A stretch of DNA of 64,000 nucleotides from Cryobacterium sp. Y29 (GTDB lineage Bacteria > Actinomycetota > Actinomycetes > Actinomycetales > Microbacteriaceae). Of this stretch, positions 38,806 through 53,667 are shown one piece after another. A program made the translations under genes and the position numbers. The notes beneath the pieces are model-generated. The model did no database searches, was not told where the DNA came from, and saw only the letters and a program-made list of their open reading frames with translations. Each line of letters opens with the position of its first letter. The first letter of the stretch is position 1. The stretch spans positions 186,001 to 250,000 of the forward strand of contig NZ_PJJN01000036.1 in assembly GCF_002929825.1 (NCBI RefSeq), in the 5' to 3' direction.

Positions 38806-40034
38806 GCGGCCCCCTGCCGCAATACCTGCGCCGGGTCGACGCCCGCTGCGCGAAACTTGGCGAGCTTGGTGGGATGCGAACCGGTCGGCTCGAGGTGGCC
38901 ATGCAGAGAGAGGAAGAGTGGGCTCGCCTCGATGGTTGCGCCGGCTAACTGGCCGCTCGGGGCGATGATCTCGGTGACCCGCCTGCGGCCGTGGCGATCG
39001 ATCTCGCAGTGCACCACGATGTCGATGCAGCCCGCCACGGTGGGCAGCACGAATGAGGAGTCAATGTTACGGCCGGCCAGCAGCGGCAGGGTTGAGAGTT
39101 TCGCGAGCGCGTCCCTGGCGCTGTTGGCGTGAATCGAGCACATTCCGGGCAGCCCGCTGTTCAGGGCGATGAGCAGGTCGAGACTTTCCGCCTCGCGCAC
39201 CTCGCCCACCACGAGCCGGTCGGGCCGCATCCGCAGCGACTCCTTGATCAGCCGGCGCAGGGTGATCTCCCCGGTTCCCTCCAGACTCGGTTGCCGGCAC
39301 TGCATCGCGACGACATCACGGGCCGACAGGTCGAGTTCAAAGGTCTCCTCCACGGTCACGATGCGTTCGCCCGGCCGGGTCGAGGAGAGCAGGGCGTTCA
39401 GCATCGTGGTTTTGCCGGTCTGGGTGGCGCCGGAGACCAGAATATTCTGCCCACCCAGCACGCAGATCCGAAGAAAATCGGCTGCCTGCTGGGTGAGCGC
39501 GCCGAGGCCGACCAGCTGGTTGAGATCGCGGATGCGCCGGGTGAACTTGCGAATGTTCACCGCCCAGTGCTTGCGCGTAATATCTGGAATCACCACGTGC
39601 AGCCGTGAACCGTCGGGTAGCGAGGCATCGACGAACGGCGACGAGAGGTCGACGCGGCGACCGGAGGCCTGCAGCATCCGCTCGACCAGGTCACGCACGT
39701 CTTGCTCGCCGAGTGACAGTGAGGTCAGTTCGGGCACCCCGTCTCGTGCTACGAACACTCGGGCCGGGCCGTTGATCCAGATTTCTTCGATCTCCGGATC
39801 GTCGAGAAACGGCTGCAGCACACCGAACCCGGTGAGCGCGGCCACGACCTCGCGGGTGGCCTGGTGCTCATCGGCGATCATCGGTGCGAGCCCGCCGAGC
39901 GCCCGCTCGCTGTAGCGCCGCAGTTCATCGCGCACGTACTGCTCCACCAACGCGTTGTTGGCCGCGAGGTCAACGCCCTCGCGGCGCACCCGCTGGCGCA
40001 CCTGGTCTGTGATGAGACGAACGGCTTCGGTCAT
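38802..40034 (-). CDS. tadA: Tad/CpaF-family secretion ATPase
   Basis: The 410-residue hexameric ATPase has Walker A GATQTGKTT near residue 206, and an Asp box with RIVTVEETFELDLSARDVVAMQCR and LRMRPDRLVVGEVREAESLDLLIALNSGLPGMCSIHANSARDAL. The N-terminal domain contains IEEIWINGPARVFV, typical of CpaF. It powers pilus assembly. It is first in the operon; no TadZ, RcpA or prepilin peptidase gene is seen next to it. Confidence 0.94.
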   Translation of the reverse strand: MTEAVRLITDQVRQRVRREGVDLAANNALVEQYVRDELRRYSERALGGLAPMIADEHQATREVVAALTGFGVLQPFLDDPEIEEIWINGPARVFVARDGVPELTSLSLGEQDVRDLVERMLQASGRRVDLSSPFVDASLPDGSRLHVVIPDITRKHWAVNIRKFTRRIRDLNQLVGLGALTQQAADFLRICVLGGQNILVSGATQTGKTTMLNALLSSTRPGERIVTVEETFELDLSARDVVAMQCRQPSLEGTGEITLRRLIKESLRMRPDRLVVGEVREAESLDLLIALNSGLPGMCSIHANSARDALAKLSTLPLLAGRNIDSSFVLPTVAGCIDIVVHCEIDRHGRRRVTEIIAPSGQLAGATIEASPLFLSLHGHLEPTGSHPTKLAKFRAAGVDPAQVLRQGAA

Positions 40035-40129
40035 TCCCGCATGATGGCCTCTTTTGCACTTCTTCGTGCAGATTCTCCACAGGGCTTGTTTTTTTCTCCT
40101 CTGAACAGCAAAAAATGATCGCCTCCGTT

Positions 40130-40963
40130 TTAGCGGGCCGACCAGCCGCCATCCATCGTGTAGCTCGACCCGGTGACCATGGCGGCGTCATCCGAGGCGA
40201 GCCAGGCCACGAGCGAGCCGACCTCGGCCGGTTCAATTAGGCGTTTGATCGCGCTCTCGGTGAGCATGATCGTGCTCAACACCTCGGACACCGGAATGCC
40301 GTGCACGAGTGCCTGATCGGTGATCTGCTTCTCGACCAAGGGCGTGCGCACGTAGCCGGGAGCGACGCAATTGCTCGTCACTCCGTGCGCGCCGCCCTCG
40401 AGCGCGGTCACCTTGGACAGGCCTTCGAGTCCGTGCTTGGCCGACACATAGGCGCTTTTGTACGGCGAGGCCCGAATGCCGTGCACCGACGACACATTGA
40501 TGATGCGCCCGAAGTTCGCCGCATACATCTGCGGCAGCACGGCCCGAATCAGCAGGAACGGTGCCTCCAGCATGAGGGTGAGGATGTTGTGGAAGTCGGC
40601 TGGCTTGAAGTCCTGGATCGGGTTGATGCGTTGAATGCCAGCATTGTTGACCAGGATGTCGACCCCCGCGAGCGCGGACGCGAGCGCAGCATCGGTGAGG
40701 GCGGCGGTATCCATGAGGTTCACGATCCAGATTGACCCACCGACCTCCTCGGCCAGGGCGGTGGCACCAGCGGTGTCGATATCGGCGACGACGACGTGCG
40801 CGCCGCGGGCAGCGAGCGCCCGAACGACGGCGGCGCCGATGCCGCTCGCACCACCCGTGACGAGAGCGCGACGCCCGGCGAGGGGCTGCGCACTGGTGCG
40901 AACGGGAGCGGCGGTGACACGGTCGGCGTTGGTGTCGGTGTCGGTGTCGGTGAGATCAGTCAT
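40130..40963 (-). CDS. bdhA: 3-hydroxybutyrate dehydrogenase (SDR family)
   Basis: The 277-residue short-chain dehydrogenase has the NAD site TGGASGIG, NNAG in ILVNNAGIQ, catalytic Ser in INVSSVHGI, and YxxxK in SAYVSAKHG. The C-terminal block LVEKQITDQALVHGIPVSEVLSTIMLTESAIKRLIEPAEVGSL is the hallmark of D-3-hydroxybutyrate dehydrogenase. It oxidises 3-hydroxybutyrate to acetoacetate. The first 25 residues are Asp/Thr-rich from a GTCGGT microrepeat; a start closer to the fold is possible. It lies downstream of an MHS permease. Confidence 0.9.
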   Translation of the reverse strand: MTDLTDTDTDTNADRVTAAPVRTSAQPLAGRRALVTGGASGIGAAVVRALAARGAHVVVADIDTAGATALAEEVGGSIWIVNLMDTAALTDAALASALAGVDILVNNAGIQRINPIQDFKPADFHNILTLMLEAPFLLIRAVLPQMYAANFGRIINVSSVHGIRASPYKSAYVSAKHGLEGLSKVTALEGGAHGVTSNCVAPGYVRTPLVEKQITDQALVHGIPVSEVLSTIMLTESAIKRLIEPAEVGSLVAWLASDDAAMVTGSSYTMDGGWSAR

Positions 40964-41092
40964 GATGTTCCTTTGGTTGCGCGATCACTGCATGGGCCGG
41001 TCTTCGGGAGGCGAGGCCCCACCGGTGCGTCGCCTCGCTGGCCCCGTTGCTGCCTGGCCCGGTTGCTTCCTAACCCAATGGTTCGGGCGGGG
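40964..41092 (-). other. Spacer between MHS permease and bdhA
   Basis: This 129-base spacer on the bdhA leader side carries a possible hairpin (GCGAGGC at about 41010 pairing with GCCTCGC at about 41032). The bdhA Shine-Dalgarno AAAGGAAC lies just before its start. The hairpin may end or attenuate the upstream transcript; no T-run is seen. Confidence 0.35.
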
Positions 41093-42499
41093 TCAGTTAC
41101 CGGTGGCGACCGGCTCGAGCCCGTGTTTGCGGGCGTCGACAGCGTCGACCTCGCGCAACGACGCTCCCGCGGTCTCCTTGAGGGTGACCACGGCGACCAC
41201 CGTGATGGCGCAGGCGATCATGATGTAGATCGCGACCGGAACCCAGCTGTTGTATTGCTGCAAAAGCGCGGAGGCGACGATCGGCGCCATCGAGCCGGCC
41301 AGAATCGAGGTGACCTGGTAGCCGAGGGACACCCCGGAGTAGCGCATCCGGGTCGGGAACATTTCGCTCATGATCGCGGGCTGGCCCGCATACATGAGGG
41401 CATGGAAGCAGAGCCCGACAGTGACGGCCAGAATGATCAGCACCGGGTTGAGGGTGTCGAACAGGGGGAAGGCGAAGAACGCCCAGGAAGCACCGAGCAC
41501 GGCGCCGGCCAGATAGACGGGCTTGCGGCCCACTCGGTCGGAGAGACGACCAACCTGGGGAATGACGATGAAGTGCACGACGTGCGCGATGAGCAGGGCG
41601 ATCAGCAACTGGCCGGTGTCGTATTCATGCACGGTCTTCAGGTAGACGATCGTGAAGCTCACGATGATGTAGTACAAAATATTTTCGGCGAACCGCAGGC
41701 CCATGGCTCCGAGGATGCCCTTGGGGTACTTGCGTACGACCTCGAGCACGCCGTAGTTGACGGCCTTCTCGGCTTCGACCTGCGCGCGGGCCTCGAGAAA
41801 GATCGGAGCTTCACTGACGTGGGTGCGAATGTAGTAGCCGATGACGACGATGATCGCGGAGAGCCAGAAGGCCACACGCCAGCCCCAGCTGAGGAACTGC
41901 TCGGGCGAAAGGAGCCACGTCATGGTGAGCAACACCACAGTGGCGAGCAGGTTGCCCATCGGCACGGCGGCCTGCGGCCAGCTCGACCAGAAGCCACGGG
42001 ACTGGTTCGGGCTGTGCTCGGCGACGAGCAGAACGGCGCCGCCCCATTCGCCACCAACAGCGAAACCCTGAATGAAGCGGAGGGCCACGAGCAAGGCGGG
42101 TGCCCAGTAACCGATGGTGTCGAAGCCGGGCAGACAGCCCATGAGGAAGGTGGCGGCACCCACCATGATGATCGTCACCTGCAGGGTGTGCTTGCGCCCG
42201 AGTTTGTCACCGATCTGGCCGAACACGATGCCACCGAGCGGCCGGGCGATGAATCCCACGGCATAGGTGAGGAAGGCGGCGATGATGCCGTCGAGTTCGC
42301 TGCCGGCGTTCGGAAAGAAGACCGTACCGAAGACCAGGCTCGCGGCGGTGGCATACAAGAAGAATTCGTACCACTCCACGACCGTTCCCACCATGGAGGC
42401 GGCGACGATCTTCTTGAGGCCGGATTTTTCGGTTTCGCTGCCAGCGGGGCGTGCGGCCTGACCGGAATTGGCAGCCCCCACGCGTTGATTGACACTCAT
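41093..42499 (-). CDS. MHS-family MFS transporter (ProP/ShiA-like)
   Basis: The 468-residue, 12-span transporter has the MHS signatures ASMVGTVVEWYEFFLYATAASLVFG near residue 35, GGIVFGQIGDKLGRKHTL near 90, and GFAVGGEWGGAVLLVAEHSP. The subfamily carries small carboxylates, betaines and related solutes by proton symport. It lies upstream of bdhA in the same direction, so uptake of 3-hydroxybutyrate or another short hydroxyacid is plausible. ATG 42499 follows GGAGAC; the frame extends 50 codons upstream without membrane features. Confidence 0.87.
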   Translation of the reverse strand: MSVNQRVGAANSGQAARPAGSETEKSGLKKIVAASMVGTVVEWYEFFLYATAASLVFGTVFFPNAGSELDGIIAAFLTYAVGFIARPLGGIVFGQIGDKLGRKHTLQVTIIMVGAATFLMGCLPGFDTIGYWAPALLVALRFIQGFAVGGEWGGAVLLVAEHSPNQSRGFWSSWPQAAVPMGNLLATVVLLTMTWLLSPEQFLSWGWRVAFWLSAIIVVIGYYIRTHVSEAPIFLEARAQVEAEKAVNYGVLEVVRKYPKGILGAMGLRFAENILYYIIVSFTIVYLKTVHEYDTGQLLIALLIAHVVHFIVIPQVGRLSDRVGRKPVYLAGAVLGASWAFFAFPLFDTLNPVLIILAVTVGLCFHALMYAGQPAIMSEMFPTRMRYSGVSLGYQVTSILAGSMAPIVASALLQQYNSWVPVAIYIMIACAITVVAVVTLKETAGASLREVDAVDARKHGLEPVATGN

Positions 42500-42819
42500 T
42501 GTCTGTCTCCTTTGTGTCGTCGATGACACGTACTTGGCCGCAGCGGCGTGCGGTGAAGAATCGGTCGCCTTCACAAAAGTACGACGTGTTTGAGTCTTCA
42601 CGCACAACGGGCGGGTAACAAGAACCAAAAAGACAGAGCGGATGTGCATAATCGCAGATCATGACTCGGCGGGGTGTCCGTCCCGAATTTACTCAGGCGC
42701 TGCACGGCCAGTTCATCTGCGATTCCTAAGAATTCACTCACTGTTTACTCATCCGTACCTCACGCGCAGGCCGGACTCTGATCTCACGACCACGAGGGTC
42801 GACGCCCGGGAGGAATGCC
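42500..42819. promoter_or_regulatory. Divergent control region between the MHS permease and the glycosyltransferase cluster
   Basis: These 320 bases hold no gene. The right half contains three copies of the octamer TT[T/C]ACTCA: 42688-42695, 42733-42740 and 42744-42751. The last two are spaced one helical turn (11 bp) apart. They lie 70-130 bases before the first gene of the six-gene cluster and could be regulator sites. GGGAGGAAT precedes the ATG at 42820. Confidence 0.4.
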
Positions 42820-44007
42820 ATGGTCACCAGGATTGTTTTGTACTCGCACGATTCGATCGGGCTGGGACACGTACGGCGGAACCTCGCCATTGCGCACGCA
42901 CTGTCGATGTACCTTCCGTCCATCATCCACGAACCGGTGAGCGGACTTCTGGTCACCGGACAAAGTGCCGCAACGTCCTTCCCCACTCCCGCCGGTTGGG
43001 ACTGGTTGGTGCTGCCCGGCATCACCACCGGTGTTGACGGCTACCGCCCGCGTCATCTCACACTGGGAATCGACACCATGACGTCGATTCGTGCCAGCAT
43101 TCTGCGCGTCGCCCTGCGCGAGTTCGCCCCTGACCTGTTGATCGTTGATCGGCACGCACTCGGCGCTCGCCGAGAACTCGAAAGCGCCCTGGTGAGCCTG
43201 CGCGCAACCCGGCCCGAGTGCGCCATCGTGCTTGGTCTTCGTGAGGTGCTCGACCGTCCCGCTGTGGCCCTCGCCGAGTGGCGGGCTATCGGCGGCGCCA
43301 CCGCCATCCGGCGGTTGTTCGATGCGCTCTGGGTGTACGGCGACCCGCGCGTGCACAACGCCTTCGAGACCGGGGAAATCCCGTCCTCGCTACTCAACCT
43401 CGCGGTACATACCGGCTACCTCGCCAACGGACGGCCGATCGGGCACGTAACGAGTGACAGCGAGCCCTTCATCCTCACCACCGTTGGCGGCGGTTCCGAC
43501 GGTCATCGTCTCGCCTCGGCTGCAGCCCGTGCGATCGCGCCACCCGGGTACCGACATTTGGTCGTGACGGGCCCACAGATGCCCGACGCCCATCATGCCG
43601 AGATCACGTCCGTGGCACGCGAGGGCACGAGCATCCTGCGCTCGGTTCCAGATGCCCTCGCCTTGCTCCGCCGGGCTGCCGCCGTCGTGTGTATGGGCGG
43701 GTACAACTCGATCAGCGAAGTGATGACGACCGCTGCGCCCACCTTGGTCGTACCGCGCGAGGCCCGCCGGCAGGAGCAGACGATTCGCGCCGCAGCACTG
43801 GCCCGCCGCGGACTCGTCGAGACCGTGACGGCAGACACCGCGACTCCGGCCTTCCTATCGGCCTGGTTCGCAGCGAACGTCGGCCGGGTCGTTCCGCGAA
43901 GCACAGTGAACCTCGACGGCCTGGAGACAGTCGCCGTACTCGCGGCAGCACTACTCAATTCCAAACAGCGGGTTCGCGAACCCGCGGAGGTGCAACATGC
44001 TGTCTGA
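42820..44007 (+). CDS. Predicted glycosyltransferase, GT28-like (COG4671 type)
   Basis: The 395-residue protein has a GT-B fold. The N-terminal half opens with VLYSHDSIGLGHVRRNLAIAHAL. The C-terminal half has ILTTVGGGSDGHRL and then LLRRAAAVVCMGGYNSISEVMTTAAPTLVVPREARRQEQTIRA, the MurG/GT28-type nucleotide-sugar site. It also resembles UDP-GlcNAc epimerase-like proteins, so activity is not certain. The coding start overlaps nothing upstream; its end overlaps the next gene by 11 bases. It is the first gene of a six-gene overlapping cluster. Confidence 0.8.
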   Translation: MVTRIVLYSHDSIGLGHVRRNLAIAHALSMYLPSIIHEPVSGLLVTGQSAATSFPTPAGWDWLVLPGITTGVDGYRPRHLTLGIDTMTSIRASILRVALREFAPDLLIVDRHALGARRELESALVSLRATRPECAIVLGLREVLDRPAVALAEWRAIGGATAIRRLFDALWVYGDPRVHNAFETGEIPSSLLNLAVHTGYLANGRPIGHVTSDSEPFILTTVGGGSDGHRLASAAARAIAPPGYRHLVVTGPQMPDAHHAEITSVAREGTSILRSVPDALALLRRAAAVVCMGGYNSISEVMTTAAPTLVVPREARRQEQTIRAAALARRGLVETVTADTATPAFLSAWFAANVGRVVPRSTVNLDGLETVAVLAAALLNSKQRVREPAEVQHAV

Positions 44008-45262
44008 CCATTCCCGATCCCCTCGGATCGGGTACGTGCTCAAAATGTACCCTCGGCTCTCGGAGACGTTCGTCGTGTCCGAGATCCTCGCCCGCGAGGC
44101 CGCCGGTGAGAATCTGGTCATCTTCTCCCTGCGTCCGCCGGTCGATTCTCGCTTTCATGCGGAACTGGCCCGCGTGGCCGCGCCGGTCGTCTATATCGAC
44201 CGGCCGTGGAAGACCTCCCTGCTCTGGGCGGAATTTCAGTCCACGGCCAAGACCGGCGTCGGATCGGCAATGTCCGCCTGTCTCGACGAGCTGCTGCTGG
44301 CCGATGTCGACGACGCGGTGCAGGCGGTCAGCCTGGCCCGCGCCGTCAGGGAATACGGCATCACCCATCTGCACGCCCACTTCGCCTCGGTCGCCACAAC
44401 GGTGGCCCGCCTGGCGTCGCTGCTCACGGGGGTGCCGTACTCATTCACGGCTCATGCCAAAGATCTCTTCCACGAGTCAGTGGACCCGGCGGACCTGGCT
44501 GTGAAACTGGCCGGGGCCCATCATGCCGTGACGGTGAGCGAGTACAACTTTGATTATCTGCGTCGCCGGTTCCCGGCCGAGACCTTACGACTGCACCGGG
44601 TTTACAACGGACTAGAACTCGCCCGTTTTCCATTCACCGAGCACCGACCACCCAGTGGCCCCCTCGCGGTGGTCACTGTCGGTCGCCTGGTCGAGAAAAA
44701 GGGCTTCAGCCTGCTGGTCGATGCGGCGCACGCACTGCACCATAGCGGTGTCGCGCTGACCGTGGACATCGTGGGCGGGGGCGAACTGACCGGGGCTTTG
44801 AGCGAACAGATCCATCGTCTCGGACTGTTCGGTATCGTGCGGCTGCACGGCCCGGTGTCGCAGACCGAGGTGGCCCTGCGGCTGGCCGCCGCTGACCTGT
44901 TCGTCGCGCCCTGCATCGTCGGCGGCGATGGGAACGCCGATGGGCTTCCCACCTCCATCCTCGAGGCGATGGCCCTCGGCGTTCCCTGCATTTCAACGGA
45001 TGTGACGGGTATCCCCGAGATCGTCCGCGCGGGCGAAACCGGAATCCTGTGCCGCTCCGGCAGTCTTGACGACCTGGTGGCTGCCATGCGCGGAGCCGCT
45101 GATCCCGCCGCGAACCTCGGTCGGCTCGCCCGGAACGCCCGCCGGGTGGTCGAGGAGTCGTTCGATTCTGCCCGCCAGGCCCGAGTACTGGGCGAGTTGT
45201 GTGCCCACACCGACTCCGATGCGAGCCGACCGGCGTCACTCGAACCGATGGCGGTGGCCTGA
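43997..45262 (+). CDS. Glycosyltransferase family 4 protein
   Basis: The 421-residue GT-B enzyme has the N-terminal acceptor domain YVLKMYPRLSETFVVSEI and HLHAHFASVATTVARLA, and the GT4 donor domain VGRLVEKKGFSLLVDAAHAL, then FVAPCIVGGDGNADGLPTSILEAMALGVP with the catalytic Glu pair. It uses a nucleotide-activated sugar and retains the anomeric configuration. Similar proteins act in exopolysaccharide or glycolipid synthesis. It overlaps the previous gene by 11 bases and the next by one. Confidence 0.88.
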   Translation: MLSDHSRSPRIGYVLKMYPRLSETFVVSEILAREAAGENLVIFSLRPPVDSRFHAELARVAAPVVYIDRPWKTSLLWAEFQSTAKTGVGSAMSACLDELLLADVDDAVQAVSLARAVREYGITHLHAHFASVATTVARLASLLTGVPYSFTAHAKDLFHESVDPADLAVKLAGAHHAVTVSEYNFDYLRRRFPAETLRLHRVYNGLELARFPFTEHRPPSGPLAVVTVGRLVEKKGFSLLVDAAHALHHSGVALTVDIVGGGELTGALSEQIHRLGLFGIVRLHGPVSQTEVALRLAAADLFVAPCIVGGDGNADGLPTSILEAMALGVPCISTDVTGIPEIVRAGETGILCRSGSLDDLVAAMRGAADPAANLGRLARNARRVVEESFDSARQARVLGELCAHTDSDASRPASLEPMAVA

Positions 45263-46497
45263 TGCGCGTCGCCTATCTGTGTGTCGACCCCGGTGTTCCC
45301 GTCTTCGGCACGAAGGGCTCCTCGGTGCACGTGCAGGAAGTGGTGCGCGCCTTCCGGGAACGCGATATGCCCGTGACCGTGTACTGCACCCGGCGTGGCA
45401 GCGACGTACCGGCTGACCTGCACGACCTCCCCGTCGTCGTGCGCACGGTAGCGGCCACCGAGTCACCAGCCGAACGGGAACGCGCCATCGCCAGCGCCGC
45501 GCAGAGCCTTGCCGACGCCGCGATCGAAGACGGATGCGACCTCGTCTACGAGCGCTACTCCTTGTTCAGCACAGCCTCGGCCGCCATCGCCCGCGCGACG
45601 GGGTCCCCCGTGATCCTCGAAGTCAACGCCCCGCTCATCGATGAACAGCGCACGCATCGTACCCTCGTCGACGAAGCCGGCGCCCGTGCCGACACCAGGC
45701 GGGTGGTGACGGCCGCAGCCGTTGTCGTGTGCGTCTCTGAGCCTGTCGCCGCCTGGATTCGACCCTTCACAACATCGCCTCGACGCATCACGGTCGTTGC
45801 GAATGGCGTGAACACCCGGCGTATCGTGCCCCCAGCACACTCGTCGGTGACGACCGGGTTCACCGTGGGCTTCATCGGCACCTTGAAACCGTGGCACGGC
45901 GTCGATGTACTGATCCGCGCCACCGCCCGGGCTGAATCTGCCGCACGCGCAAACTCCGGTCGGCTCGCCGCCGAACCACCCTGGCGCCTGCGCATCGTGG
46001 GCGATGGGCCAGAACGGGCGGCGCTGCGCCAGCTGGCTTCGAATTACCCACTCGACGTGGAGTTCACCGGGGCCGTGGCGCCGGAACGGGTGCCCGAGCT
46101 GCTGGCCGGCTTCGACGTGGCCGCCGCACCGTATCCGGCCGGCCAGGATCAGTACTTCTCCCCCCTCAAACTCTACGAGTACCTCTCCGCGGGACTCCCC
46201 GTGGTCGCTTCGGCGGTGGGCCAGATTCCCACCGTCATCGTCGACGACTGCACCGGGCTGCTCGTGCCGCCCGGCGATGAGGTAGCCCTCGCAAATGCAC
46301 TCGGCCGGGTGAGCGAAGATCGTGCCCTGCGAGTGCGGCTGGGCCGCGCCGCACGCGCACTCGCCGTCGAGCGGCATGACTGGTGGGCTGTAGTGGGCCG
46401 GATCCTCGACCACCTCAGCGCGGCTGACCAGGCGCAGCTGAGAGCCGCCGCCTCGTTCGCACCGCAACCCGCGCTGCTGATCGGTGGCCGACGATGA
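45262..46497 (+). CDS. Glycosyltransferase family 4 protein
   Basis: The 411-residue second GT4 of the cluster opens with AYLCVDPGVPVFGTKGSSVHVQEVVRAF. It has the donor domain FIGTLKPWHGVDVLIRATA and YPAGQDQYFSPLKLYEYLSAGLPVVASAVGQIPTVI; the catalytic Glu is in the KLYEY segment. It is clearly different from the preceding GT4, so it probably adds a different residue. The start TGATG overlaps the previous stop by one base; its own stop overlaps the ABC gene start by 4. Confidence 0.88.
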   Translation: MRVAYLCVDPGVPVFGTKGSSVHVQEVVRAFRERDMPVTVYCTRRGSDVPADLHDLPVVVRTVAATESPAERERAIASAAQSLADAAIEDGCDLVYERYSLFSTASAAIARATGSPVILEVNAPLIDEQRTHRTLVDEAGARADTRRVVTAAAVVVCVSEPVAAWIRPFTTSPRRITVVANGVNTRRIVPPAHSSVTTGFTVGFIGTLKPWHGVDVLIRATARAESAARANSGRLAAEPPWRLRIVGDGPERAALRQLASNYPLDVEFTGAVAPERVPELLAGFDVAAAPYPAGQDQYFSPLKLYEYLSAGLPVVASAVGQIPTVIVDDCTGLLVPPGDEVALANALGRVSEDRALRVRLGRAARALAVERHDWWAVVGRILDHLSAADQAQLRAAASFAPQPALLIGGRR

Positions 46498-48302
46498 CGC
46501 GCTCACGCGAGCCCAGTGCCCTGCGCCAAAGCCTGCGCATCGTCCGCCCCCATATCGGACGGCATTGGAAACTGGTCACCGGCGGCCTCATCGCGCTGCT
46601 GATCGAGGTCGCGCTGTGCGTTCTCGAACCGTGGCCGGTGAAATTCGTGATCGATTCGGTCACGGCCAGCCTCGGCGCCACCCTTCCGCCCGGCTCAACC
46701 ACGCCGCAGGCGACCATTGGGCTCCTGCTCGCCTGCGGAGCACTCGTGGTCGCACTGACGGCGGGGCGCGCGGCGAGCAGCTATCTGAGCACGGTGGCGT
46801 TTGCCCTCGTCGGGTCTCGCGTCGCGACCGACCTGCGTACGCGGGTGTTCACCCACGTTCAGGAACTCTCCCTGCGCTACCACGCCGCCGCCAGGTCCGG
46901 CGACACGGTGCAACGCCTGGTCGGAGACATCGGCCGGTTGCAGGAAGTCGCCGTCACGGCCGGACTTCCGCTTTTCGGCAACGTGCTGACATTCTTCGTC
47001 CTCGCGATCGTCATGGTTGTGTTGGATCCGCTCCTCGCCCTGGTCATTGTGGGCGCGGCCGTAGCGTACCTGTTGTCGTCGCGACGCAGTTCACGTGCCA
47101 TCACCTCCGCTTCCCGCACCACCAGGAAGGGCGAAGGATCACTCGCTAATACCGCGGCCGAAACGCTCGATGCTATCCGGGTGGTACAGGCATACGGTCT
47201 AGAGCACACCGTCTCCGGAGCCTTCCGCAGCGGCAATGAGACCGCGCTGCGCGAGGGGATCAAAAGTCGCCGGCTGGCTGCCGGGCTCGAACGCCGAACC
47301 GACATCATCGTCGGAGTCGCGACCGCGCTCGTGCTCGCCGGAGGCGGATGGCGCGTCATCGACGGGCAGATGACTCTGGGCGAACTGGTCATGTTCATGA
47401 TGTATCTCAAGATCGCCATGAAACCGCTGCGCGACCTGGCCAAGTACACCGGGCGCATCGCGCGGGCCACCGCCTCGGGCGAACGCATCGCCGAACTCCT
47501 CGACGAACCCATCGAGGTATTCGATTCGCCGACCGCTCGGCCACTCGACCACAGCATGGGCCGGTTGACGTTCCAGGACGTGCACGCCCCGGACGGCTAC
47601 GGCCGGCCGTTGTTCGCCGGCCTGTCGCTCGAGATTCCGGCCGGGCAGAACGTGTGCTTGCTCGGTCCGTCCGGCTCGGGCAAGTCCACCCTGGTCGGTC
47701 TGATCCTGCGCATGGTCGACCCGTCCTCCGGCAGCGTGCGCATTGACGGCACCGACGTGCGGGAGGTGACGCTGCGCAGCCTGCGCGGGCAGGTGTCGAT
47801 CCTGCTGCAGGACTCCGTGCTGTTCGCCACGACCGTGCGGGAGAACATCCGCTACGGTCGCCTGGACGCGACCGACGCCGAAGTCGAAGATGCGGCCCGA
47901 ATTGCGAATGCCGAGGAATTCATCACCGCCCTTCCGAGCGGCTTTGAGACGATACTCGGCGGTCGTGGCAACACCTTGTCAGGCGGCCAACGCCAGCGCA
48001 TCGCCATCGCTCGTGCAGTCCTGCGCGATGCCCCCATCGTCATCCTCGACGAGGCAACGACCGGTCTCGACCCCAGCGGTCGCAGCGTCGTCGAAGCCTC
48101 GATGGAAACCCTTACTCGGGGTCGAACGGTCATTACGATCACCCACGCTTCCCACGCCGTGCATCGCGCGGACCGGGTGCTGTGGCTCGAAGACGGTCGG
48201 ATCGTCGAAGACGGGTCCCCGGCAGAACTTCTCAAATCACCCGGCAGTCGGCTGTCAAACTGGCTGGCCGAGCAGGAGACGACCGTTCGGATCCGGTCAT
48301 GA
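46494..48302 (+). CDS. ABC exporter half-transporter (transmembrane plus ATPase domain)
   Basis: Residues 1-330 of this 602-residue protein form a six-helix type I exporter domain. Residues 350-602 are the ATPase: Walker A GPSGSGKS at 391, Q-loop LLQDSVLFATTVRENIRYG, signature LSGGQRQR, Walker B IVILDEATTGLD. It should act as a homodimer. Its place between two glycosyltransferase and two kinase-fold genes suggests that it flips or exports a glycosylated product, as MsbA-like proteins do; this is inference. Confidence 0.9.
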   Translation: MTRSREPSALRQSLRIVRPHIGRHWKLVTGGLIALLIEVALCVLEPWPVKFVIDSVTASLGATLPPGSTTPQATIGLLLACGALVVALTAGRAASSYLSTVAFALVGSRVATDLRTRVFTHVQELSLRYHAAARSGDTVQRLVGDIGRLQEVAVTAGLPLFGNVLTFFVLAIVMVVLDPLLALVIVGAAVAYLLSSRRSSRAITSASRTTRKGEGSLANTAAETLDAIRVVQAYGLEHTVSGAFRSGNETALREGIKSRRLAAGLERRTDIIVGVATALVLAGGGWRVIDGQMTLGELVMFMMYLKIAMKPLRDLAKYTGRIARATASGERIAELLDEPIEVFDSPTARPLDHSMGRLTFQDVHAPDGYGRPLFAGLSLEIPAGQNVCLLGPSGSGKSTLVGLILRMVDPSSGSVRIDGTDVREVTLRSLRGQVSILLQDSVLFATTVRENIRYGRLDATDAEVEDAARIANAEEFITALPSGFETILGGRGNTLSGGQRQRIAIARAVLRDAPIVILDEATTGLDPSGRSVVEASMETLTRGRTVITITHASHAVHRADRVLWLEDGRIVEDGSPAELLKSPGSRLSNWLAEQETTVRIRS

Positions 48303-49570
48303 CGATCGCGGCCGGCACCAGCCCGCTGCCAAATGACCGCGTCACAGCGAGGTCTCACGCCGCTGAGCAGGATCTGATCTCTCGGGATCCCCGCGTGGCG
48401 GCGCTCCGAGTGGTTTTCAACGACGACGAGGAGCTGTCCGCTGCACTCAATCGCCCGGCACACGTCACCCGCATCCGCTACAAGCCAGCATCGAGCGTGG
48501 TGATCACCTATTCCAGTGACCGTTTCGCCGCACCGCACGACCGGTGGGGTGACCACGGCTGGCTCGCCAGCTATGTCGACGACAGCAAGGTGAGCAAGAG
48601 TCTGGTGAAGGCGCGACGCGGCAACGCCGCTGCCGCACGAGTGGGGGGCATCCGGGGAACCGTGCACGGCGCGGCATCAGCTGACCGCAGGCTCACCGGC
48701 ACTCTCGCCCGGCTCGATCAGGCATGCCCTCAACTGACCGAAACAGCGACCCTGCTCCGGCACAACCCGCACCGGCGGTTGCTCCTGCGCACGTCGGGGG
48801 CGACCGATCTCGTCGTCAAGGTCACGCCGCGCACCCACCGCGCAAGTGCCGACCCGAAATTCCGTCAGGTTGAATTCCTTGATCACCTCACTTCCGAGGG
48901 GATCCCGGTCGTTCGGTTATGGCATCCCGGAGGCCTGCGTGATGTCGTCGCCGGTCAGTGGTGGGGTACCGGTGACCTCGCCGCCGTCCAAAGCACGGAT
49001 GCGGCGGGTGCGGCCGGGGAGGCGCTGGCAGCGCTGCATTCCCTCCGCCTGGCACCCGGCCAGTTTGCGATCGGCGCCCGCAACGCCGACCAGGCGCTGG
49101 CCGGCTCCGAATCCGAATCCGGGCGCGCTGCGGGCGCCATTGCGGTCGTCCTGCCCGAATTCGCCCAGCGCGCGCACCGACTGGCCCAGGCGATCAACGA
49201 TCGCCGTGCTGCATCGGACCGGCCCAGCGATCCAGTTCTCACCCACGGTGACTTCTCGCCCGATCAGGTGCTCGTCGGACCCGGCGGGATCCGCTTGATC
49301 GATTTTGATCGGGTCGGCTGGTCGGATCCGGAACGCGACCTCGGTTCGTTCGCCGCGGCCGCCATCATCCTCAGGAGCCCGGACCTCGCCGTGGCCCTGT
49401 TTGACGGCTACGTCGGGGCGGGCGGCGAACTGCACCCGGATGCGATCAACGACTGGCTGGCTCACGCGCTGCTCAGCCGCGCCATCGATCCGTTCCGGTA
49501 TCGGGCCCCAGACTGGGTCGGTGACGTCGAACGCATTCTCACCGCCGCCGAACAGGTGCTGGAACGATGA
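48299..49570 (+). CDS. Phosphotransferase-family (APH/choline kinase fold) protein, large form
   Basis: The C-terminal half of this 423-residue protein is an aminoglycoside phosphotransferase fold, with the catalytic loop HGDFSPDQVLV at residue 316 and the metal site LIDFDRVGWSDPERDLGSF. The first 180 residues contain a second, less obvious kinase-like N-lobe (HVTRIRYKPASSVVITY; then LLLRTSGATDLVVKVTP), as if lobes were duplicated. APH-fold enzymes phosphorylate sugars, amino sugars or choline. It overlaps both neighbours by 4 bases. The substrate may be the glycan made by the cluster. Confidence 0.78.
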   Translation: MTIAAGTSPLPNDRVTARSHAAEQDLISRDPRVAALRVVFNDDEELSAALNRPAHVTRIRYKPASSVVITYSSDRFAAPHDRWGDHGWLASYVDDSKVSKSLVKARRGNAAAARVGGIRGTVHGAASADRRLTGTLARLDQACPQLTETATLLRHNPHRRLLLRTSGATDLVVKVTPRTHRASADPKFRQVEFLDHLTSEGIPVVRLWHPGGLRDVVAGQWWGTGDLAAVQSTDAAGAAGEALAALHSLRLAPGQFAIGARNADQALAGSESESGRAAGAIAVVLPEFAQRAHRLAQAINDRRAASDRPSDPVLTHGDFSPDQVLVGPGGIRLIDFDRVGWSDPERDLGSFAAAAIILRSPDLAVALFDGYVGAGGELHPDAINDWLAHALLSRAIDPFRYRAPDWVGDVERILTAAEQVLER

Positions 49571-50598
49571 TGTTCTCACTGCCCCCCAGCGCCGACGACG
49601 ACGGAACCACCTGGCAGATTGAACGCGCCTGGCCTGATCGTCGCAGCGGAGCGACCTTCGAGGCGCGGGCCGGACACGACGGTCAGGTACGCGGTGGCCG
49701 TTGGACACCGTCAAGCGGAGCCGTCCTCGGCCGCTTCGGCCACGATGACCAGCTCCCAGACCTCGCCGCTACCGCCCGATCGGGTTGGATTGTGGTACAC
49801 CGCCCCGGCCGTCGCGCCGTCGTGCGTTCTGCAGATGGCTCGAATTACGCGAAGGTCTTTCGGCCCGGTCGCGCGGCCGCTGCAGTGGCGGGCATGCACA
49901 ACGTCGAGGGGCTGGCATCCGCTTTCCTCCGGCCGCGCATCGTGGCGGTGACGAGAGATGTCGTCACCTGCACCACTGTTCCCGGGCGCTCACTGCATGA
50001 TCTCGGAGCGGATCCGGCCGCTGGCCTCGAGTGGATTCGCGCCTGGTTTGCCTGGCGCAGCGCGTGGGTGGATTCGATCGGCTCCGCGCCGGCAGATCCG
50101 TCACTTCCCACACACGATGCGTTCGCCGAAGCGGCCATCGTACGGTCGTGGGCGGCGAAACTGACCAGTTTCAACCCGTCACCCGCGTCGCCTCGCCTCG
50201 TGCAGGTCGCAGATCGAGTTGCCGCCGGGCTGGTCGCTGGAACAGCCGACGCAGTGCGCCCAGCCCATCGAGACCTGCACGACAAGCAGATTCTGTGGGA
50301 TTCCTTGCACGGTAGCGGTCTGATCGACTTCGACACCGCGGCGAATGCGGAGCCCGCTCTCGACCTGGGCAACTTGCGCGCGCACCTGGCGCTTCGCGAG
50401 CGCCAGGGGCTTCTCAGCTCCGCGCGCCGCACGCACGCCGCGGGCTTGATCGATTCGGTCGCCGACGAGCTTCACGTCGCCCCCGAACGCGTCAACGCAT
50501 ACGAAGCTGCAGCGTGGTTTCGTCTGGGCTGCCTCTACGCCTTCCGACCCCGATGGGCAGCCCTCGCCGCGGTGCTGCGCGCCGAGATCTGCCGGTAG
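49567..50598 (+). CDS. Phosphotransferase-family (APH fold) protein, small form
   Basis: The catalytic loop of this 343-residue protein is HRDLHDKQILW at residue 234, with the metal motif GLIDFDTAANAEPALDLGNLRAHLAL. The N-lobe contains AVVRSADGSNYAKVFRPGRA, whose Lys should bind ATP. It is related to, but diverged from, the product of the preceding gene. It is the last member of the six-gene cluster. The HRDLHDKQ form differs from the HGDFSPDQ of the first kinase, so the two proteins may have different substrates, or one may be regulatory. Confidence 0.78.
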   Translation: MMFSLPPSADDDGTTWQIERAWPDRRSGATFEARAGHDGQVRGGRWTPSSGAVLGRFGHDDQLPDLAATARSGWIVVHRPGRRAVVRSADGSNYAKVFRPGRAAAAVAGMHNVEGLASAFLRPRIVAVTRDVVTCTTVPGRSLHDLGADPAAGLEWIRAWFAWRSAWVDSIGSAPADPSLPTHDAFAEAAIVRSWAAKLTSFNPSPASPRLVQVADRVAAGLVAGTADAVRPAHRDLHDKQILWDSLHGSGLIDFDTAANAEPALDLGNLRAHLALRERQGLLSSARRTHAAGLIDSVADELHVAPERVNAYEAAAWFRLGCLYAFRPRWAALAAVLRAEICR

Positions 50599-50622
50599 CC
50601 GGGAGCCTAGGCATAATGGCGT

Positions 50623-51567
50623 ATGACCTTTCCGCCGGCTGGCACCGCTCCCACTCCCGATGATCTCCTCATTTTTCTCGCGGTCGCACGCACCGGCCGA
50701 TTCACCACCGCGGCTGAGAGCCTGGGCCTGAACCACACCACGGTGTCCCGGCGTATCACCGCCCTCGAAAAGGCCCTCGACGGCCGTCTCCTGGCCCGCG
50801 CCGTGGGCGGCTGGGAGCTGACCGAGCTCGGAGAACGCGCACGCACCGCGGCTGAGGGGGTGGAAACTGCGGTCAGCCTACTGCGTGGTTCCGACGCCGA
50901 ACCCCAACAGATCTCCGGGGTGGTGCGCATGTCGGCGACGGACGGCTTCAGCGCCTATATCGCTGCCCCGGCCGTGGCCATACTGCAGCGCCGGCATCCG
51001 CTCCTGCGCGTCGAAATCGTCACCGTCACCCGGCGGGCCCTGCAGCACCGTTCGGGACTGGACATCGAAGTCGTCGTGGGTGAACCACAGGTGCACCGGG
51101 CGGAGTCGATTCTGCTCGGGTATTACAGCCTCGGAATGTACGCCTCGCGGCGCTACCTCAAGGCCCACGGCACACCGACCACCATTGCCGAGCTGACCGA
51201 GCATCCCCTCGTGTATTTCGTGGATTCCATGCTTCAGGTCGACGACCTCGATGCCCCCCGGCGGCTCGTGCCGCAGATGCGGGAGTCGCTCAGCTCCACC
51301 AACGTGTTCGTGCACGTCGAGGGAACCCGGGCCGGCGCCGGAATTGGATTTCTGCCCTGCTTCATGGCCGATCAGCATGCAGACCTGGTGCGCCTTCTTC
51401 CAGAAGATTTTCAGGAACGCCTGCCGTACTGGATGGTTTTGCGCACCGAGTCATTGCGGCTGCCGGCCGTCGCGGCGCTCGTCGCGGCGCTCCGCGCGCA
51501 AATGGAATCCTATGCGCCGGCGCTGCTCGGCCGTAACGTTATTGCAGGGACGGACATAGCCAACTAG
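50623..51567 (+). CDS. LysR-family transcriptional regulator
   Basis: The 314-residue protein has a winged helix (DDLLIFLAVARTGRFTTAAESLGLNHTTVSRRITALEKALDGRLL) followed by an effector domain with RVEIVTVTRRALQHRSGLDIEVVVGEP. CATAAT six bases before the ATG suggests a leaderless mRNA. It follows the six-gene cluster by 25 bases and may be read through from it, but has its own promoter signal. Target and ligand are unknown. Confidence 0.85.
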   Translation: MTFPPAGTAPTPDDLLIFLAVARTGRFTTAAESLGLNHTTVSRRITALEKALDGRLLARAVGGWELTELGERARTAAEGVETAVSLLRGSDAEPQQISGVVRMSATDGFSAYIAAPAVAILQRRHPLLRVEIVTVTRRALQHRSGLDIEVVVGEPQVHRAESILLGYYSLGMYASRRYLKAHGTPTTIAELTEHPLVYFVDSMLQVDDLDAPRRLVPQMRESLSSTNVFVHVEGTRAGAGIGFLPCFMADQHADLVRLLPEDFQERLPYWMVLRTESLRLPAVAALVAALRAQMESYAPALLGRNVIAGTDIAN

Positions 51568-51608
51568 ACCCAGCCGCGCAGCTGGACAACTACACTAGGA
51601 AGGCGCCA

Positions 51609-51690
51609 GCGGGAGTGGTGGAATTGGCAGACACGCAGGATTTAGGATCCTGTGCTTTCGAGCGTGGGGGTTCAAGTCCCCTCTCCCGCA
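51609..51690 (+). tRNA. tRNA-Leu (anticodon TAG)
   Basis: This 82-nt class II tRNA has acceptor GCGGGAG pairing with CTCCCGC, a D-arm GGTGGAATTGGCAGACACGC, anticodon stem CAGGA/TCCTG with loop TTTAGGA (anticodon TAG), a long variable arm TGCTTTCGAGCG, and T-arm GGGGG-TTCAAGT-CCCCT. The discriminator is A and CCA is not encoded. It reads CUA leucine codons. Confidence 0.97.
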
Positions 51691-51999
51691 CATGGTTCAC
51701 TCTTCAGCCCTCTACTGCACATCGAACAACACGCTCCCCCACGGGGATACCGCTGGCTCCTTTCGGGTCAGGTGAGGGCCTGATTGTCGCCGTAAGGGCG
51801 TTTTCGCAGGGGCGTTCAGCACGGGTATCCTGCGCGGATGCCGCAGCCCGCAACCTCGACCAGCCCCACAACTGGCTGACGAGCCCCCTGTTTCAGGGGT
51901 CGGCGGCCCGGCGTTCTCTCACCATTTGACGCTACCGTGTGACTCGGCACCCGCCGTCGCTACCCGAACGTCTGCCCTTCGCCGACTGGAGTTCCCCGC
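51691..51999. other. Intergenic region between tRNA-Leu and the DedA gene
   Basis: No gene is supported in these 309 bases. A tight hairpin CCCCTG-TTT-CAGGGG lies around 51883-51898 without a T-run. An open frame running through the tRNA is an artefact. TTGACG at about 51926 lacks a matching -10. Confidence 0.5.
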
Positions 52000-52737
52000 G
52001 TGATTCACACCGCATTGATTCCCTGGCTCGACCCGACGCTTATCATTGAGTCGGCTGGTCCCTGGGCTTTGCTCGTCGTCTGCGCGATCGTCTTTGCCGA
52101 GACCGGTCTGCTGGTCGGGTTCCTTCTTCCGGGCGATACCCTGCTGATCATCACCGGCCTGCTCGCGTTCCCCGCCGCCGGAGTCATCCGGATTGACATC
52201 TGGTGGGTCGCCCTGGCCATAGGATTTGCCGCGTTCCTGGGTGGTGAAATCGGCTACCTCATCGGACATAAATTCGGTCCGCGCGTCTTTGAACGCAAGG
52301 AGTCGGGCCTATTCAGCATCAAAAACGTCGACCGCACGAATGCGTTCTTCGTGCGATTCGGCGGTGTCGCCGTCATCGTCGCCCGGTTCGTGCCGATCGT
52401 GCGCACCTTCGCACCGGTCGCGGCGGGCGTCGGCCACATGGACTACCGCAAGTACACGCTGTACAACCTGATCGGCGCGCTGCTCTGGGGAACCGGCCTG
52501 ACCTTCGGCGGGTACTTTCTCGGCTACATTCCGCCGGTGGCCGAATTCGTCACGACGTACATCGACCTGATCTTGCTCAGCGCGGTGGTCATCACCCTCA
52601 TTCCCACGGTATACCACTACGTGCAGTCAATCGTGAAAGCCCGCCGACTGCGCGCCCAGCCCACCACTGTCACGGGCAGTCACCTGCTCGACCCCGAAAC
52701 GTTCAAGACCAACCACGCCGGCCGCCATGAGAACTGA
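52000..52737 (+). CDS. DedA-family membrane protein
   Basis: The 245-residue protein carries the DedA (VTT) signatures FAETGLLVGFLLPGDTLL near residue 33 and RFVPIVRTFAPVAAGVGHMDYRKYTLYNLIGALLWG near 128, including the conserved Gly and basic residues of the re-entrant loops. DedA proteins are linked to lipid-carrier (undecaprenyl phosphate) or phospholipid translocation and membrane homeostasis. The GTG start at 52000 follows GGAG at 51989. It is monocistronic. Confidence 0.9.
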   Translation: MIHTALIPWLDPTLIIESAGPWALLVVCAIVFAETGLLVGFLLPGDTLLIITGLLAFPAAGVIRIDIWWVALAIGFAAFLGGEIGYLIGHKFGPRVFERKESGLFSIKNVDRTNAFFVRFGGVAVIVARFVPIVRTFAPVAAGVGHMDYRKYTLYNLIGALLWGTGLTFGGYFLGYIPPVAEFVTTYIDLILLSAVVITLIPTVYHYVQSIVKARRLRAQPTTVTGSHLLDPETFKTNHAGRHEN

Positions 52738-52758
52738 GGCCGTCACCATCTGATTCGT

Positions 52759-53667
52759 TCAGCGGTGCTGGTGGCCTTCATGCTCAGCGTGCTCGGTCGG
52801 TTCCAGCTGAAAGGTTGAGTGAGCGACGTCGAAATGCTTGCTGAGGCATCCCGACAGCTCATCGAGCAAAGCGTCGGTGCCGTGTGCAAGCACGGTCGCC
52901 TCCACGACGATATGCGCGGTGAACACGTGCGCACCGCTGGTAATGGCCCAGACGTGCACATCGTGCACGTCGACCACGCCATCCGTGCCGAGCAGATGGC
53001 GCCGAATCTCGGAAATATCGGTGTCGGCCGGCGTGGACTGGCTGAACACGCGCACGACGTCACGTAACAGCACGAAAGCGCGCGGAACGATCATGGCGGC
53101 AATGACGAGCGAGGCGATGGCATCCGCTTGGGCAAAACCGGTTATCAGAATACTGATGGCGGCCACGATCACGGCAACGGATCCGAGGGCGTCGCCGAGC
53201 ACCTCGAGGTAGGCGCCGCGCATGTTGATCGACCCGGCAGCCGCCGGACGAAGCAGCAGCATTCCGGCGATGTTCGCTGCCAGACCGATGATGGCCACGA
53301 TGAGCATGGGAGCTGGCAGCACAGCGCTCTCGCTCGGGGCCATCAGTCGAGTGACCGCAGCGACCGAAACGACGCCGGCCACGCCAAGCAGGATCAACCC
53401 GTTGATCAGCGCGCCGAACACCTCGGTGCGCTGAAAACCGAAGGTGGCCCGGTCCGTCGCCGGGCGTGATGCCATGACGGTGGCCGTCAGGGCAACGAGG
53501 AGCCCGAGCAGGTCGGACAGCATGTGCCCAGCGTCGGCCAGCAGAGCGAGCGATCCGGTCAGCCAGGCACCGATCACCTCGAGCAGCAGCACGACGGACA
53601 CAATGCCAATGACGAGGGTCAGTCGCCTCCGGTTCGAGTCGGAGCCGTGCGCGTGATCGTGACCCAT
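52759..53667 (-). CDS. Cation diffusion facilitator (CDF) metal exporter
   Basis: The 302-residue protein has a His-rich N terminus (MGHDHAHG), six spans with metal-site residues in LLADAGHMLSDLLGL (helix 2) and LEVLGDALGSVAVIVAA (helix 5), and a cytoplasmic domain from about 205. The His-Asp pattern resembles Zn2+/Cd2+ exporters such as CzcD. The C terminus is also His-rich (HAEHEGHQHR). It acts as a proton-driven dimer. Confidence 0.9.
   Translation of the reverse strand: MGHDHAHGSDSNRRRLTLVIGIVSVVLLLEVIGAWLTGSLALLADAGHMLSDLLGLLVALTATVMASRPATDRATFGFQRTEVFGALINGLILLGVAGVVSVAAVTRLMAPSESAVLPAPMLIVAIIGLAANIAGMLLLRPAAAGSINMRGAYLEVLGDALGSVAVIVAAISILITGFAQADAIASLVIAAMIVPRAFVLLRDVVRVFSQSTPADTDISEIRRHLLGTDGVVDVHDVHVWAITSGAHVFTAHIVVEATVLAHGTDALLDELSGCLSKHFDVAHSTFQLEPTEHAEHEGHQHR

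What the first reader, a model, noticed from the sequence alone, without database searches (positions are those of the whole stretch)
42820..50598. Six-gene overlapping cluster: three glycosyltransferases, an ABC exporter and two kinase-fold proteins
All junctions overlap (11, 1, 4, 4 and 4 bases), so the genes are made as one unit. Together they encode a GT28/COG4671-like protein, two different GT4 enzymes, an MsbA-like exporter and two APH-fold proteins, one with an apparently duplicated N-lobe. There is no polymerase, flippase, lipid-carrier transferase or ligase. This looks like synthesis, phosphorylation and export of a small glycoconjugate (glycolipid, phosphoglycan or glycosylated metabolite), and I cannot match it to a named pathway.
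Basis: partly seen in the sequence, partly recalled or inferred. Interest (0 to 1): 0.8.

Follow-up and report, generated by a model that had tools for sequence, protein, structure and literature searches.

The report
Mobile six-gene sugar-export cassette with kinases
A tightly packed set of six bacterial genes, found in the same order in many distantly related bacteria, most likely builds a sugar chain, adds phosphate to it and pumps it out of the cell, by a route that has not been characterised as far as we could find.

Summary
In detail: six ORFs at 42820-50598 overlap by 11, 1, 4, 4 and 4 bases. They encode GT28-like A, GT4s B and C, one-chain ABC exporter D, and APH-fold kinases E and F with intact catalytic residues. 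The order A-B-C-D-E-F recurs in 29 of 79 loci found with gene A, in 16 of 20 further actinobacterial loci (19 if the E motif counts), and on E. coli plasmids, there followed by an AlgE-like channel and a nucleotide-sugar dehydrogenase. Neighbouring products are fused elsewhere: E-F in nine loci and, more telling, exporter D with kinase E in three. A UDP-glucose-dehydrogenase-type gene lies nearby in 12 of 79 loci. In the window's genus the cassette is a discrete insertion of about 7.95 kb between an MFS and a LysR gene: 3 of 57 genomes filled, 42 empty, 12 undetermined. Best reading: a transferable cassette that makes, phosphorylates and exports a probably uronate-containing glycan, with the kinase pair coupled to the exporter. 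Product, phosphate acceptor and chain length are not shown.

The parts
42820..44007 (+). Gene A: GT-B glycosyltransferase, GT28/MurG-like (probably inverting and nucleotide-sugar dependent: inference from the family)
   Evidence: PF04101 24.8 bits, cut-off 22; profile of 25 aligned sequences matches MurG 1f0k at 2e-10; 33 invariant columns in those 25 sequences, window included
43997..45262 (+). Gene B: GT4 glycosyltransferase, EpsE/WcaL-like
   Evidence: PF00534 103 bits; NCBIfam EpsE 173.4 bits, below its cut-off of 400
45262..46497 (+). Gene C: second GT4 glycosyltransferase
   Evidence: PF13692 98.2 bits
46494..48302 (+). Gene D: MsbA-like (type-IV) ABC exporter, membrane and ATPase domains in one chain
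   Evidence: PF00664 132 bits and PF00005 114 bits; its relatives are fused to kinase E in three other genomes
48299..49570 (+). Gene E: APH-fold kinase with an extra N-terminal lobe-like region (about residues 36-128)
   Evidence: PF01636 73 bits; H, G, D, D, Q of HGDxxxDQ and both D of DxD invariant in 23 of 23 aligned sequences, window included; model pLDDT 89, kinase part residues 125-423
49567..50598 (+). Gene F: second APH-fold kinase with an N-terminal beta-rich extension
   Evidence: PF01636 32.4 bits; H, D, Q and DxD residues invariant in 23 of 23 aligned sequences, window included; model pLDDT 94, kinase part residues 55-343
42666..50610 (.). Inserted segment (7945 bp) that holds the six genes and no other predicted gene of note
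   Evidence: In 8 of 8 aligned sister loci homology to the left flank stops at 42665 and to the right flank resumes at 50611, with an empty site between
42647..42665 (.). Left junction: imperfect match to the same 19 bp of the empty site as the right junction
   Evidence: 19-base overlap of the two flank alignments on the empty site in 8 of 8 loci
50611..50629 (.). Right junction copy of the imperfect repeat; contains the start codon of the flanking LysR gene
   Evidence: right end of the copy approximate

Best explanation
A horizontally moved cassette for making and exporting a surface or secreted glycan, probably one with a uronic acid. Inferred steps: A, B and C add sugars from nucleotide donors (UDP-glucuronate or a similar uronate is the likely donor of one of them) to an unknown acceptor on the cytoplasmic side; the kinase pair E/F, which acts as one unit bound to the exporter, uses ATP to phosphorylate the glycan (or its reducing-end or lipid part); the MsbA-fold exporter D then moves the phosphorylated product across the membrane. 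In the E. coli carriers an AlgE-like barrel would take it through the outer membrane. The closest working analogy is WbdD, whose kinase phosphorylates the end of the E. coli O9a chain and stops its growth. Shown here: gene content, order, intact motifs, fusions D-E and E-F, linked dehydrogenase, insertion. Inferred: every chemical step. Rough odds: glycan product 0.85; kinases act on the exported molecule 0.6; uronate donor 0.55; phosphate as a cap or export licence 0.35.
For: Order conserved in 29 of 79 loci by tblastn, plus L037, L047 and L053 when E and F are sought by profile. Of 20 further loci that I picked from the 60 distinct genomes matched have all six by tblastn and 19 when the E motif is also accepted; the 20th contig ends early. 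E-F fused in L013, L015, L018, L019, L022, L033, L127 (7 of 104 loci scanned by motif) and, by profile, in L037 and L047. D-E fused, in the order A-B-C-DE-F, in L053, L179 and L180; in a search of 396 genomes of the phylum 2 match the fusion from end to end, G1118 (L179) in one open frame of 1034 aa. E. coli plasmids: same six-gene order, then Alginate_exp PF13372 (84.1 bits) and a nucleotide sugar dehydrogenase. UDP-glucose-dehydrogenase-type gene in 12 of 79 loci within about 10 kb; at 0-3 copies per genome of about 4 Mb, as in the window's genus, chance gives at most about 2% (my estimate); also in Shinella and Rhizobium etli and in 2 of the 20 picked loci. Kinase residues invariant. E profile matches include maltokinase and glucosamine kinase; maltokinase shares the Gln of HGDxxxxQ.
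Confidence: 0.55

Rival explanations
1. Natural-product locus: the glycosyltransferases decorate an antibiotic-like molecule, the APH-fold proteins are self-resistance kinases and D is the drug exporter.
For: A has weak matches to macrolide glycosyltransferases (27.1 bits); E and F fold like antibiotic kinases; E matches LxmK weakly (44.8 bits).
Against: Resistance and LxmK models score far below cut-off: APH_3p 24.8 of 205, LxmK 44.8 of 315, MGT 27.1 of 260. Beside the six, the only neighbours that I found recurring across genera and could name are a two-component pair and UDPGDH; not every recurring neighbour was identified. Linked AlgE and UDPGDH fit a glycan.
Confidence: 0.12
2. Glycolipid or lipid-linked oligosaccharide flipping: A-B-C build a short head group on a lipid, E/F phosphorylate it as in lipid A core or phosphoglycolipids, D flips it as MsbA or PglK do, and it stays in the membrane.
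For: D scores best against MsbA-related models (390.3 and 369.2 bits); three GTs without polymerase fit a short head group.
Against: Both MsbA models are below cut-off (780.4 and 602). The AlgE-like barrel beside the E. coli cassette suggests release across the outer membrane. No acyltransferase among the six.
Confidence: 0.22
3. E/F are regulators, not cargo kinases: they phosphorylate the exporter or a glycosyltransferase and set its activity.
For: Kinase E is physically fused to the exporter in three genomes, as a regulatory domain would be.
Against: The listed fold matches are almost all small-molecule kinases (among sequence matches Rio2, a protein kinase, appears at E 0.0095); two different kinases with distinct conserved motifs (HGDxSxDQ and HRDLHDKQ types) suggest two chemical steps.
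Confidence: 0.1
4. Teichuronic-acid-like wall polymer of Gram-positive cells, built by the three GTs and attached by housekeeping ligases.
For: UDPGDH linkage; weak TuaC and TuaH matches of B and C (76.1 and 41.3 bits).
Against: Both below cut-off 550; no flippase or polymerase of the tua type among the six; the same six genes occur in E. coli and Paracoccus, which have no teichuronic acid (recalled).
Confidence: 0.1

Closest known systems
E. coli O9a O-antigen pathway with WbdD (PMC3482155, abstract read)
   Same: Cytoplasmic glycosyltransferases, a kinase that phosphorylates the glycan, and ABC-transporter-dependent export
   Different: WbdD has a eukaryotic-type kinase domain fused to a methyltransferase; export there uses a two-part Wzm/Wzt transporter (recalled), here a one-chain exporter; no methyltransferase among the six; two APH kinases that can be fused to each other or, for E, to the exporter
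MsbA / NdvA / HepA / PglK type-IV glycan and glycolipid exporters
   Same: D has the same domain set and scores 390.3 (MsbA-related), 369.2 (MsbA), 329.5 (HepA), 312.6 (glucan exporter) and 129.7 (PglK) bits
   Different: All below the curated cut-offs; exporter-kinase fusion in relatives
Maltokinase and glucosamine kinase (APH-fold sugar kinases)
   Same: E profile matches them (3.5e-06 and 8.8e-04); Gln in the HGDxxxxQ motif (maltokinase)
   Different: Aminoglycoside kinases score as well or better, so this is not a specific link; different domain layout
Alginate export (AlgE)
   Same: AlgE-like barrel beside the E. coli version
   Different: No GT2 synthase among the annotated genes of that cluster; no AlgE match in the other loci scanned
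Roseobacter, rhizobial ('redA/redB' in R. etli) and cyanobacterial GT28-GT4 clusters
   Same: Homologous A (about 30-39% identity) and mostly B, sometimes UDPGDH nearby
   Different: Histidine phosphatase in many, no kinase pair found; other exporter types or none in the run; no function found in the one search made for redA/redB

Membership tests
APH phosphotransferase family (PF01636) | Score above Pfam cut-off 23.2 bits | tested here: met
   E 73.0, F 32.4 bits
APH phosphotransferase family (PF01636) | Catalytic HxD and metal-binding DxD residues kept | tested here: met
   Invariant in 23 of 23 aligned sequences for E and for F; the Asn usual in this family (recalled) is Gln
Aminoglycoside resistance kinases APH(3') | NCBIfam cut-off 205 bits | tested here: not met
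   E 24.8 bits; F no NCBIfam match
Class V lanthipeptide kinase LxmK | NCBIfam cut-off 315 bits | tested here: not met
Maltokinase / glucosamine kinase | Closest solved relative by profile and fold | tested here: inconclusive
   Listed at 3.5e-06 and 8.8e-04 but tied with other APH kinases
MsbA lipid A exporter (TIGR02203) and MsbA_rel (TIGR02204) | NCBIfam cut-offs 602 and 780.4 bits | tested here: not met
   D 369.2 and 390.3 bits
Wzm/Wzt ABC-dependent polysaccharide export | Separate ABC-2 permease and ATPase | tested here: not met
   D is one chain with PF00664 and PF00005
Wzx/Wzy-dependent pathway | Flippase and polymerase in the locus | tested here: not met
   None among the six proteins; genes elsewhere in the genome not searched
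MurG | NCBIfam cut-off 250.25 bits | tested here: not met
   A 21.3 bits; distant relative by profile
GT28 C-terminal domain (PF04101) | Pfam cut-off 22 bits | tested here: met
   A 24.8 bits
EpsE exopolysaccharide GT4 | NCBIfam cut-off 400 bits | tested here: not met
   B 173.4 bits, full-length match
WbdD-type chain terminator | Kinase plus methyltransferase acting on the glycan end | tested here: not met
   No methyltransferase domain among the six; activity not testable here. Lowers 'is a WbdD', not 'works like WbdD'

The most novel reading that the evidence does not exclude
A separate route of bacterial glycan secretion, shared by Actinomycetota, Proteobacteria (E. coli and Paracoccus plasmids) and Verrucomicrobiota, in which a pair of sugar-kinase-fold enzymes sits on a one-chain type-IV ABC exporter and phosphorylation of the glycan licenses, times or caps its export; it moves between bacteria as a compact six-gene cassette.
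Probability: 0.3. Interest if true: 0.85.

Novelty: new variant of a known kind. Interest (0 to 1): 0.6.

Why it matters
If right, it links carbohydrate phosphorylation directly to an ABC exporter, which would be a mechanism distinct from the Wzx/Wzy, Wzm/Wzt and synthase routes (those routes as recalled). The exporter-kinase fusions make it testable with single proteins. Its presence on plasmids of E. coli and as a clean insertion in Cryobacterium suggests that a surface or secreted glycan trait is carried as a compact unit over very large distances.

Tried and rejected
Part of the unit: the LysR gene 24 bp downstream and the MFS gene upstream; rejected, they are the flanks of the empty site. 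Defence system: PADLOC matched only D, to mad3 (100 bits) and mad8 (33 bits), which I take as general ABC-ATPase similarity. Regulation: no sigma-70-like promoter (shuffles 0.9) and 2 terminator-like sites (shuffles 4.6) in 42400-52100; Rfam at gathering thresholds shows only a tRNA in 40000-53000. Plasmid search with gene F found nothing, although E. coli F aligns with it at 18% identity and keeps the motif; tblastn was too insensitive. Genus-wide UDPGDH co-occurrence: uninformative. N-lobe duplication by profile: weak. The Shinella 903-aa ABC protein was tested as an exporter-kinase fusion and is not one. Solved-structure searches with single A, E and F sequences: nothing at E 0.01. Papers: searches returned none; those in 44 and 82 returned papers that look unrelated from title and start of abstract (not opened); PMC10562709 on one carrier strain has no hit for polysaccharide, glycosyltransferase, capsul or alginate in its main text (term search only); PMC5009963 was read in part (part 1 of 2) and does not mention the locus there; the plasmid paper PMC5066353 is not held.

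Limits: gene starts in relatives were chosen by a script rule, so overlap counts there are rough (A-B overlap of exactly 11 bases in 24 of 33). Linked genes were sought by tblastn with a few seeds, so misses are likely. The 20 loci were picked by me from the 60 distinct genomes matched (49 and 16, five shared). The count of 42 of 57 empty sites was made by eye from the tables (flank matches on one contig and strand no more than 245 bases apart); 8 of them were aligned base by base. In many of the more diverged genomes the left match stops inside or just behind the MFS gene, so there only the adjacency of the two genes is shown.
Full report
What is there. The window lies in a Cryobacterium-like genome (G000, contig C35; a 98% identical gene A occurs in Cryobacterium sp. 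Y57). Six + strand ORFs at 42820-50598 overlap by 11, 1, 4, 4 and 4 bases. Pfam assigns A to the GT28 C-terminal domain, B and C to GT4, D to a one-chain ABC exporter, E and F to the APH family. Every NCBIfam model listed for the six scores below its curated cut-off (at most 25 rows shown per protein; none for F), so no curated named subfamily was found for them.

Conservation. Gene A alone was used to find 79 loci (the best 80 of 279 relatives were kept). In 29 of 79 all six genes follow in the same order by tblastn, at identities down to about 28% for E: Marisediminicola, Cryobacterium, Millisia, Microbacterium, Brevibacterium, Brachybacterium, Rothia, Micrococcus, a Propionibacteriaceae bin, Streptomyces. 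Of the other 50, L011, L016, L031 and L032 run off their contig ends, L037, L047 and L053 are completed by profile, and most of the rest are cousin clusters with other gene sets or orders. Of 20 further loci that I picked from actinobacterial genomes matched show all six by tblastn and 19 when the E motif is accepted; the last contig ends early. Gene A at E <= 1e-40 is present in 49 of 297 genomes sampled from the order and 16 of 394 from the class, the window's own genome included; strong matches (E <= 1e-100) in 8 of 199 from the family and 4 of 57 of the genus, own genome included. So it is widespread but patchy.

Outside Actinomycetota. Two E. coli plasmid regions looked at carry GT28, GT4, GT4, ABC, APH, APH in this order, followed by an Alginate_exp barrel and a nucleotide sugar dehydrogenase; at megablast sensitivity 18 of 5426 complete E. 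coli genomes have it, in all 18 on a plasmid. A Paracoccus plasmid has A-B-C-D and one 740-aa E-F fusion. Verrucomicrobial bin L037 and bacterial bin L047 have A-B-C-D and an E-F fusion.

Fusions. E and F motifs lie in one open frame in L013, L015, L018, L019, L022, L033 and L127 of 104 loci scanned and, by profile, in L037 and L047. In L053, L179 and L180 the order is A-B-C-DE-F: one frame of about 1000 aa holds the exporter with Walker A and LSGGQ motifs and the whole E kinase (profile E-values 1.5e-43, 3.6e-49, 2.6e-41), then F. L179 and L180 came from a search of 396 genomes of the phylum, in which two (G1118, G1046) match the L053 fusion from end to end (the G1046 match has one TGA, which lies at the very start of the aligned stretch, since the frame from there on is open). 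Fusions of neighbouring genes along the chain D-E-F are the best evidence that the kinases work with the exporter.

Linked genes. A UDP-glucose-dehydrogenase-type gene is near gene A in 12 of 79 loci: directly downstream of F in three Rothia loci and in Brachybacterium L015, upstream of A in the Actinomycetales bin L016, upstream on the other strand in Microbacterium halophytorum, directly upstream of A in three roseobacter-type loci and two cyanobacterial ones, after B in a Ktedonobacterium. Two of the 20 picked actinobacterial loci have it after F. A histidine kinase (80 bits or more to one seed) is within the fetched flanks in 18 of 79 loci, mostly with an OmpR-type regulator beside A (domains confirmed for L006 and L012, and the regulator of L035). 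Roseobacter and cyanobacterial cousins have a histidine phosphatase. The window has none of these beside the cassette (ORFs), but 56 of 57 genomes of the genus have a UDPGDH-family gene.

The insertion. Flank searches in 57 genomes of the genus place the MFS and LysR genes that border the cassette next to each other, at most 245 bases between the matches, in 42 genomes (counted by eye), about 8 kb apart in 3 (G000, G034, G035), and undetermined in 12. Base-level alignment in 8 of the 42 shows left homology to 42665 and right homology from 50611, with the same 19 empty-site bases matched by both flanks. So a segment of 7945 bp with the six genes was gained (or lost) as a unit at a short imperfect repeat; no transposase was seen among its ORFs. 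G012 (its gene A has the contig coordinates of the Cryobacterium frigoriphilum record) has the cassette on contig C57 and an empty MFS-LysR site on C60, which points to separate acquisitions. After insertion the LysR gene lies 24 bp behind F, an effect of the insertion, not evidence of a regulator of its own.

Mechanism. Three glycosyltransferases, an exporter of the MsbA type, and linked UDPGDH and (in E. coli) an AlgE-like channel point to a glycan that leaves the cell. The kinases, fused in other genomes to each other and, for E, to the exporter, most likely phosphorylate that cargo. WbdD of E. coli O9a is a documented case of a kinase that phosphorylates a glycan end and stops polymerisation in an ABC-dependent pathway (PMC3482155, abstract). 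I propose that E/F play a related role, by different enzymes, at a different type of exporter. Which sugar is phosphorylated, whether one kinase starts and the other ends the chain, and whether the product is a polymer are open.

Novelty. Open-access full-text searches found no description; these searches cover only part of the literature and depend on wording, and the paper most likely to mention the E. coli plasmid locus is not held. I class it as a new variant of ABC-exporter-dependent glycan secretion rather than a new category, since each part belongs to a known fold and no chemistry has been shown.

Noticed in passing
L125 13998-24176 (E. coli plasmid) and L124 1547-11737: Same six genes plus an Alginate_exp barrel and a nucleotide sugar dehydrogenase on large plasmids (the two looked at are typed IncFIA, IncFIB); 18 of 5426 complete E. 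coli genomes, none chromosomal.
   Followed up: partly
L128 11953-18496, L040, L126, L134: Alphaproteobacterial cousin clusters: GT28-GT4-GT4 with histidine phosphatase, second GT28-like protein and polysaccharide deacetylase (Ruegeria), or a 903-aa ABC protein (Shinella; genes called redA/redB in R. etli). No function found.
   Followed up: partly
L044 9998-18061, L052 9998-18355: Cyanobacterial cousins: two GT28-like genes, an exporter 43% identical to D in its best segment, then a histidine-phosphatase protein in the place where the kinases sit elsewhere.
   Followed up: no
L006 7753-9878, L012 579-2749, L035 6950-9180: A histidine kinase and OmpR-type regulator directly upstream of the cassette in a number of carriers, a possible regulator of the glycan.
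   Followed up: partly
window 51609-51691 +: tRNA-Leu behind the LysR gene, about 1 kb from the right end of the insertion.
   Followed up: no
L151 7636-8806 (minus strand): Gene B appears as two tblastn pieces in different frames in this genome, a possible frameshift or assembly error.
   Followed up: no
window 40130-42650 and 50623-51567: SDR and MFS genes and a divergent LysR gene, apparently a conserved neighbourhood of the genus that the cassette has split.
   Followed up: partly
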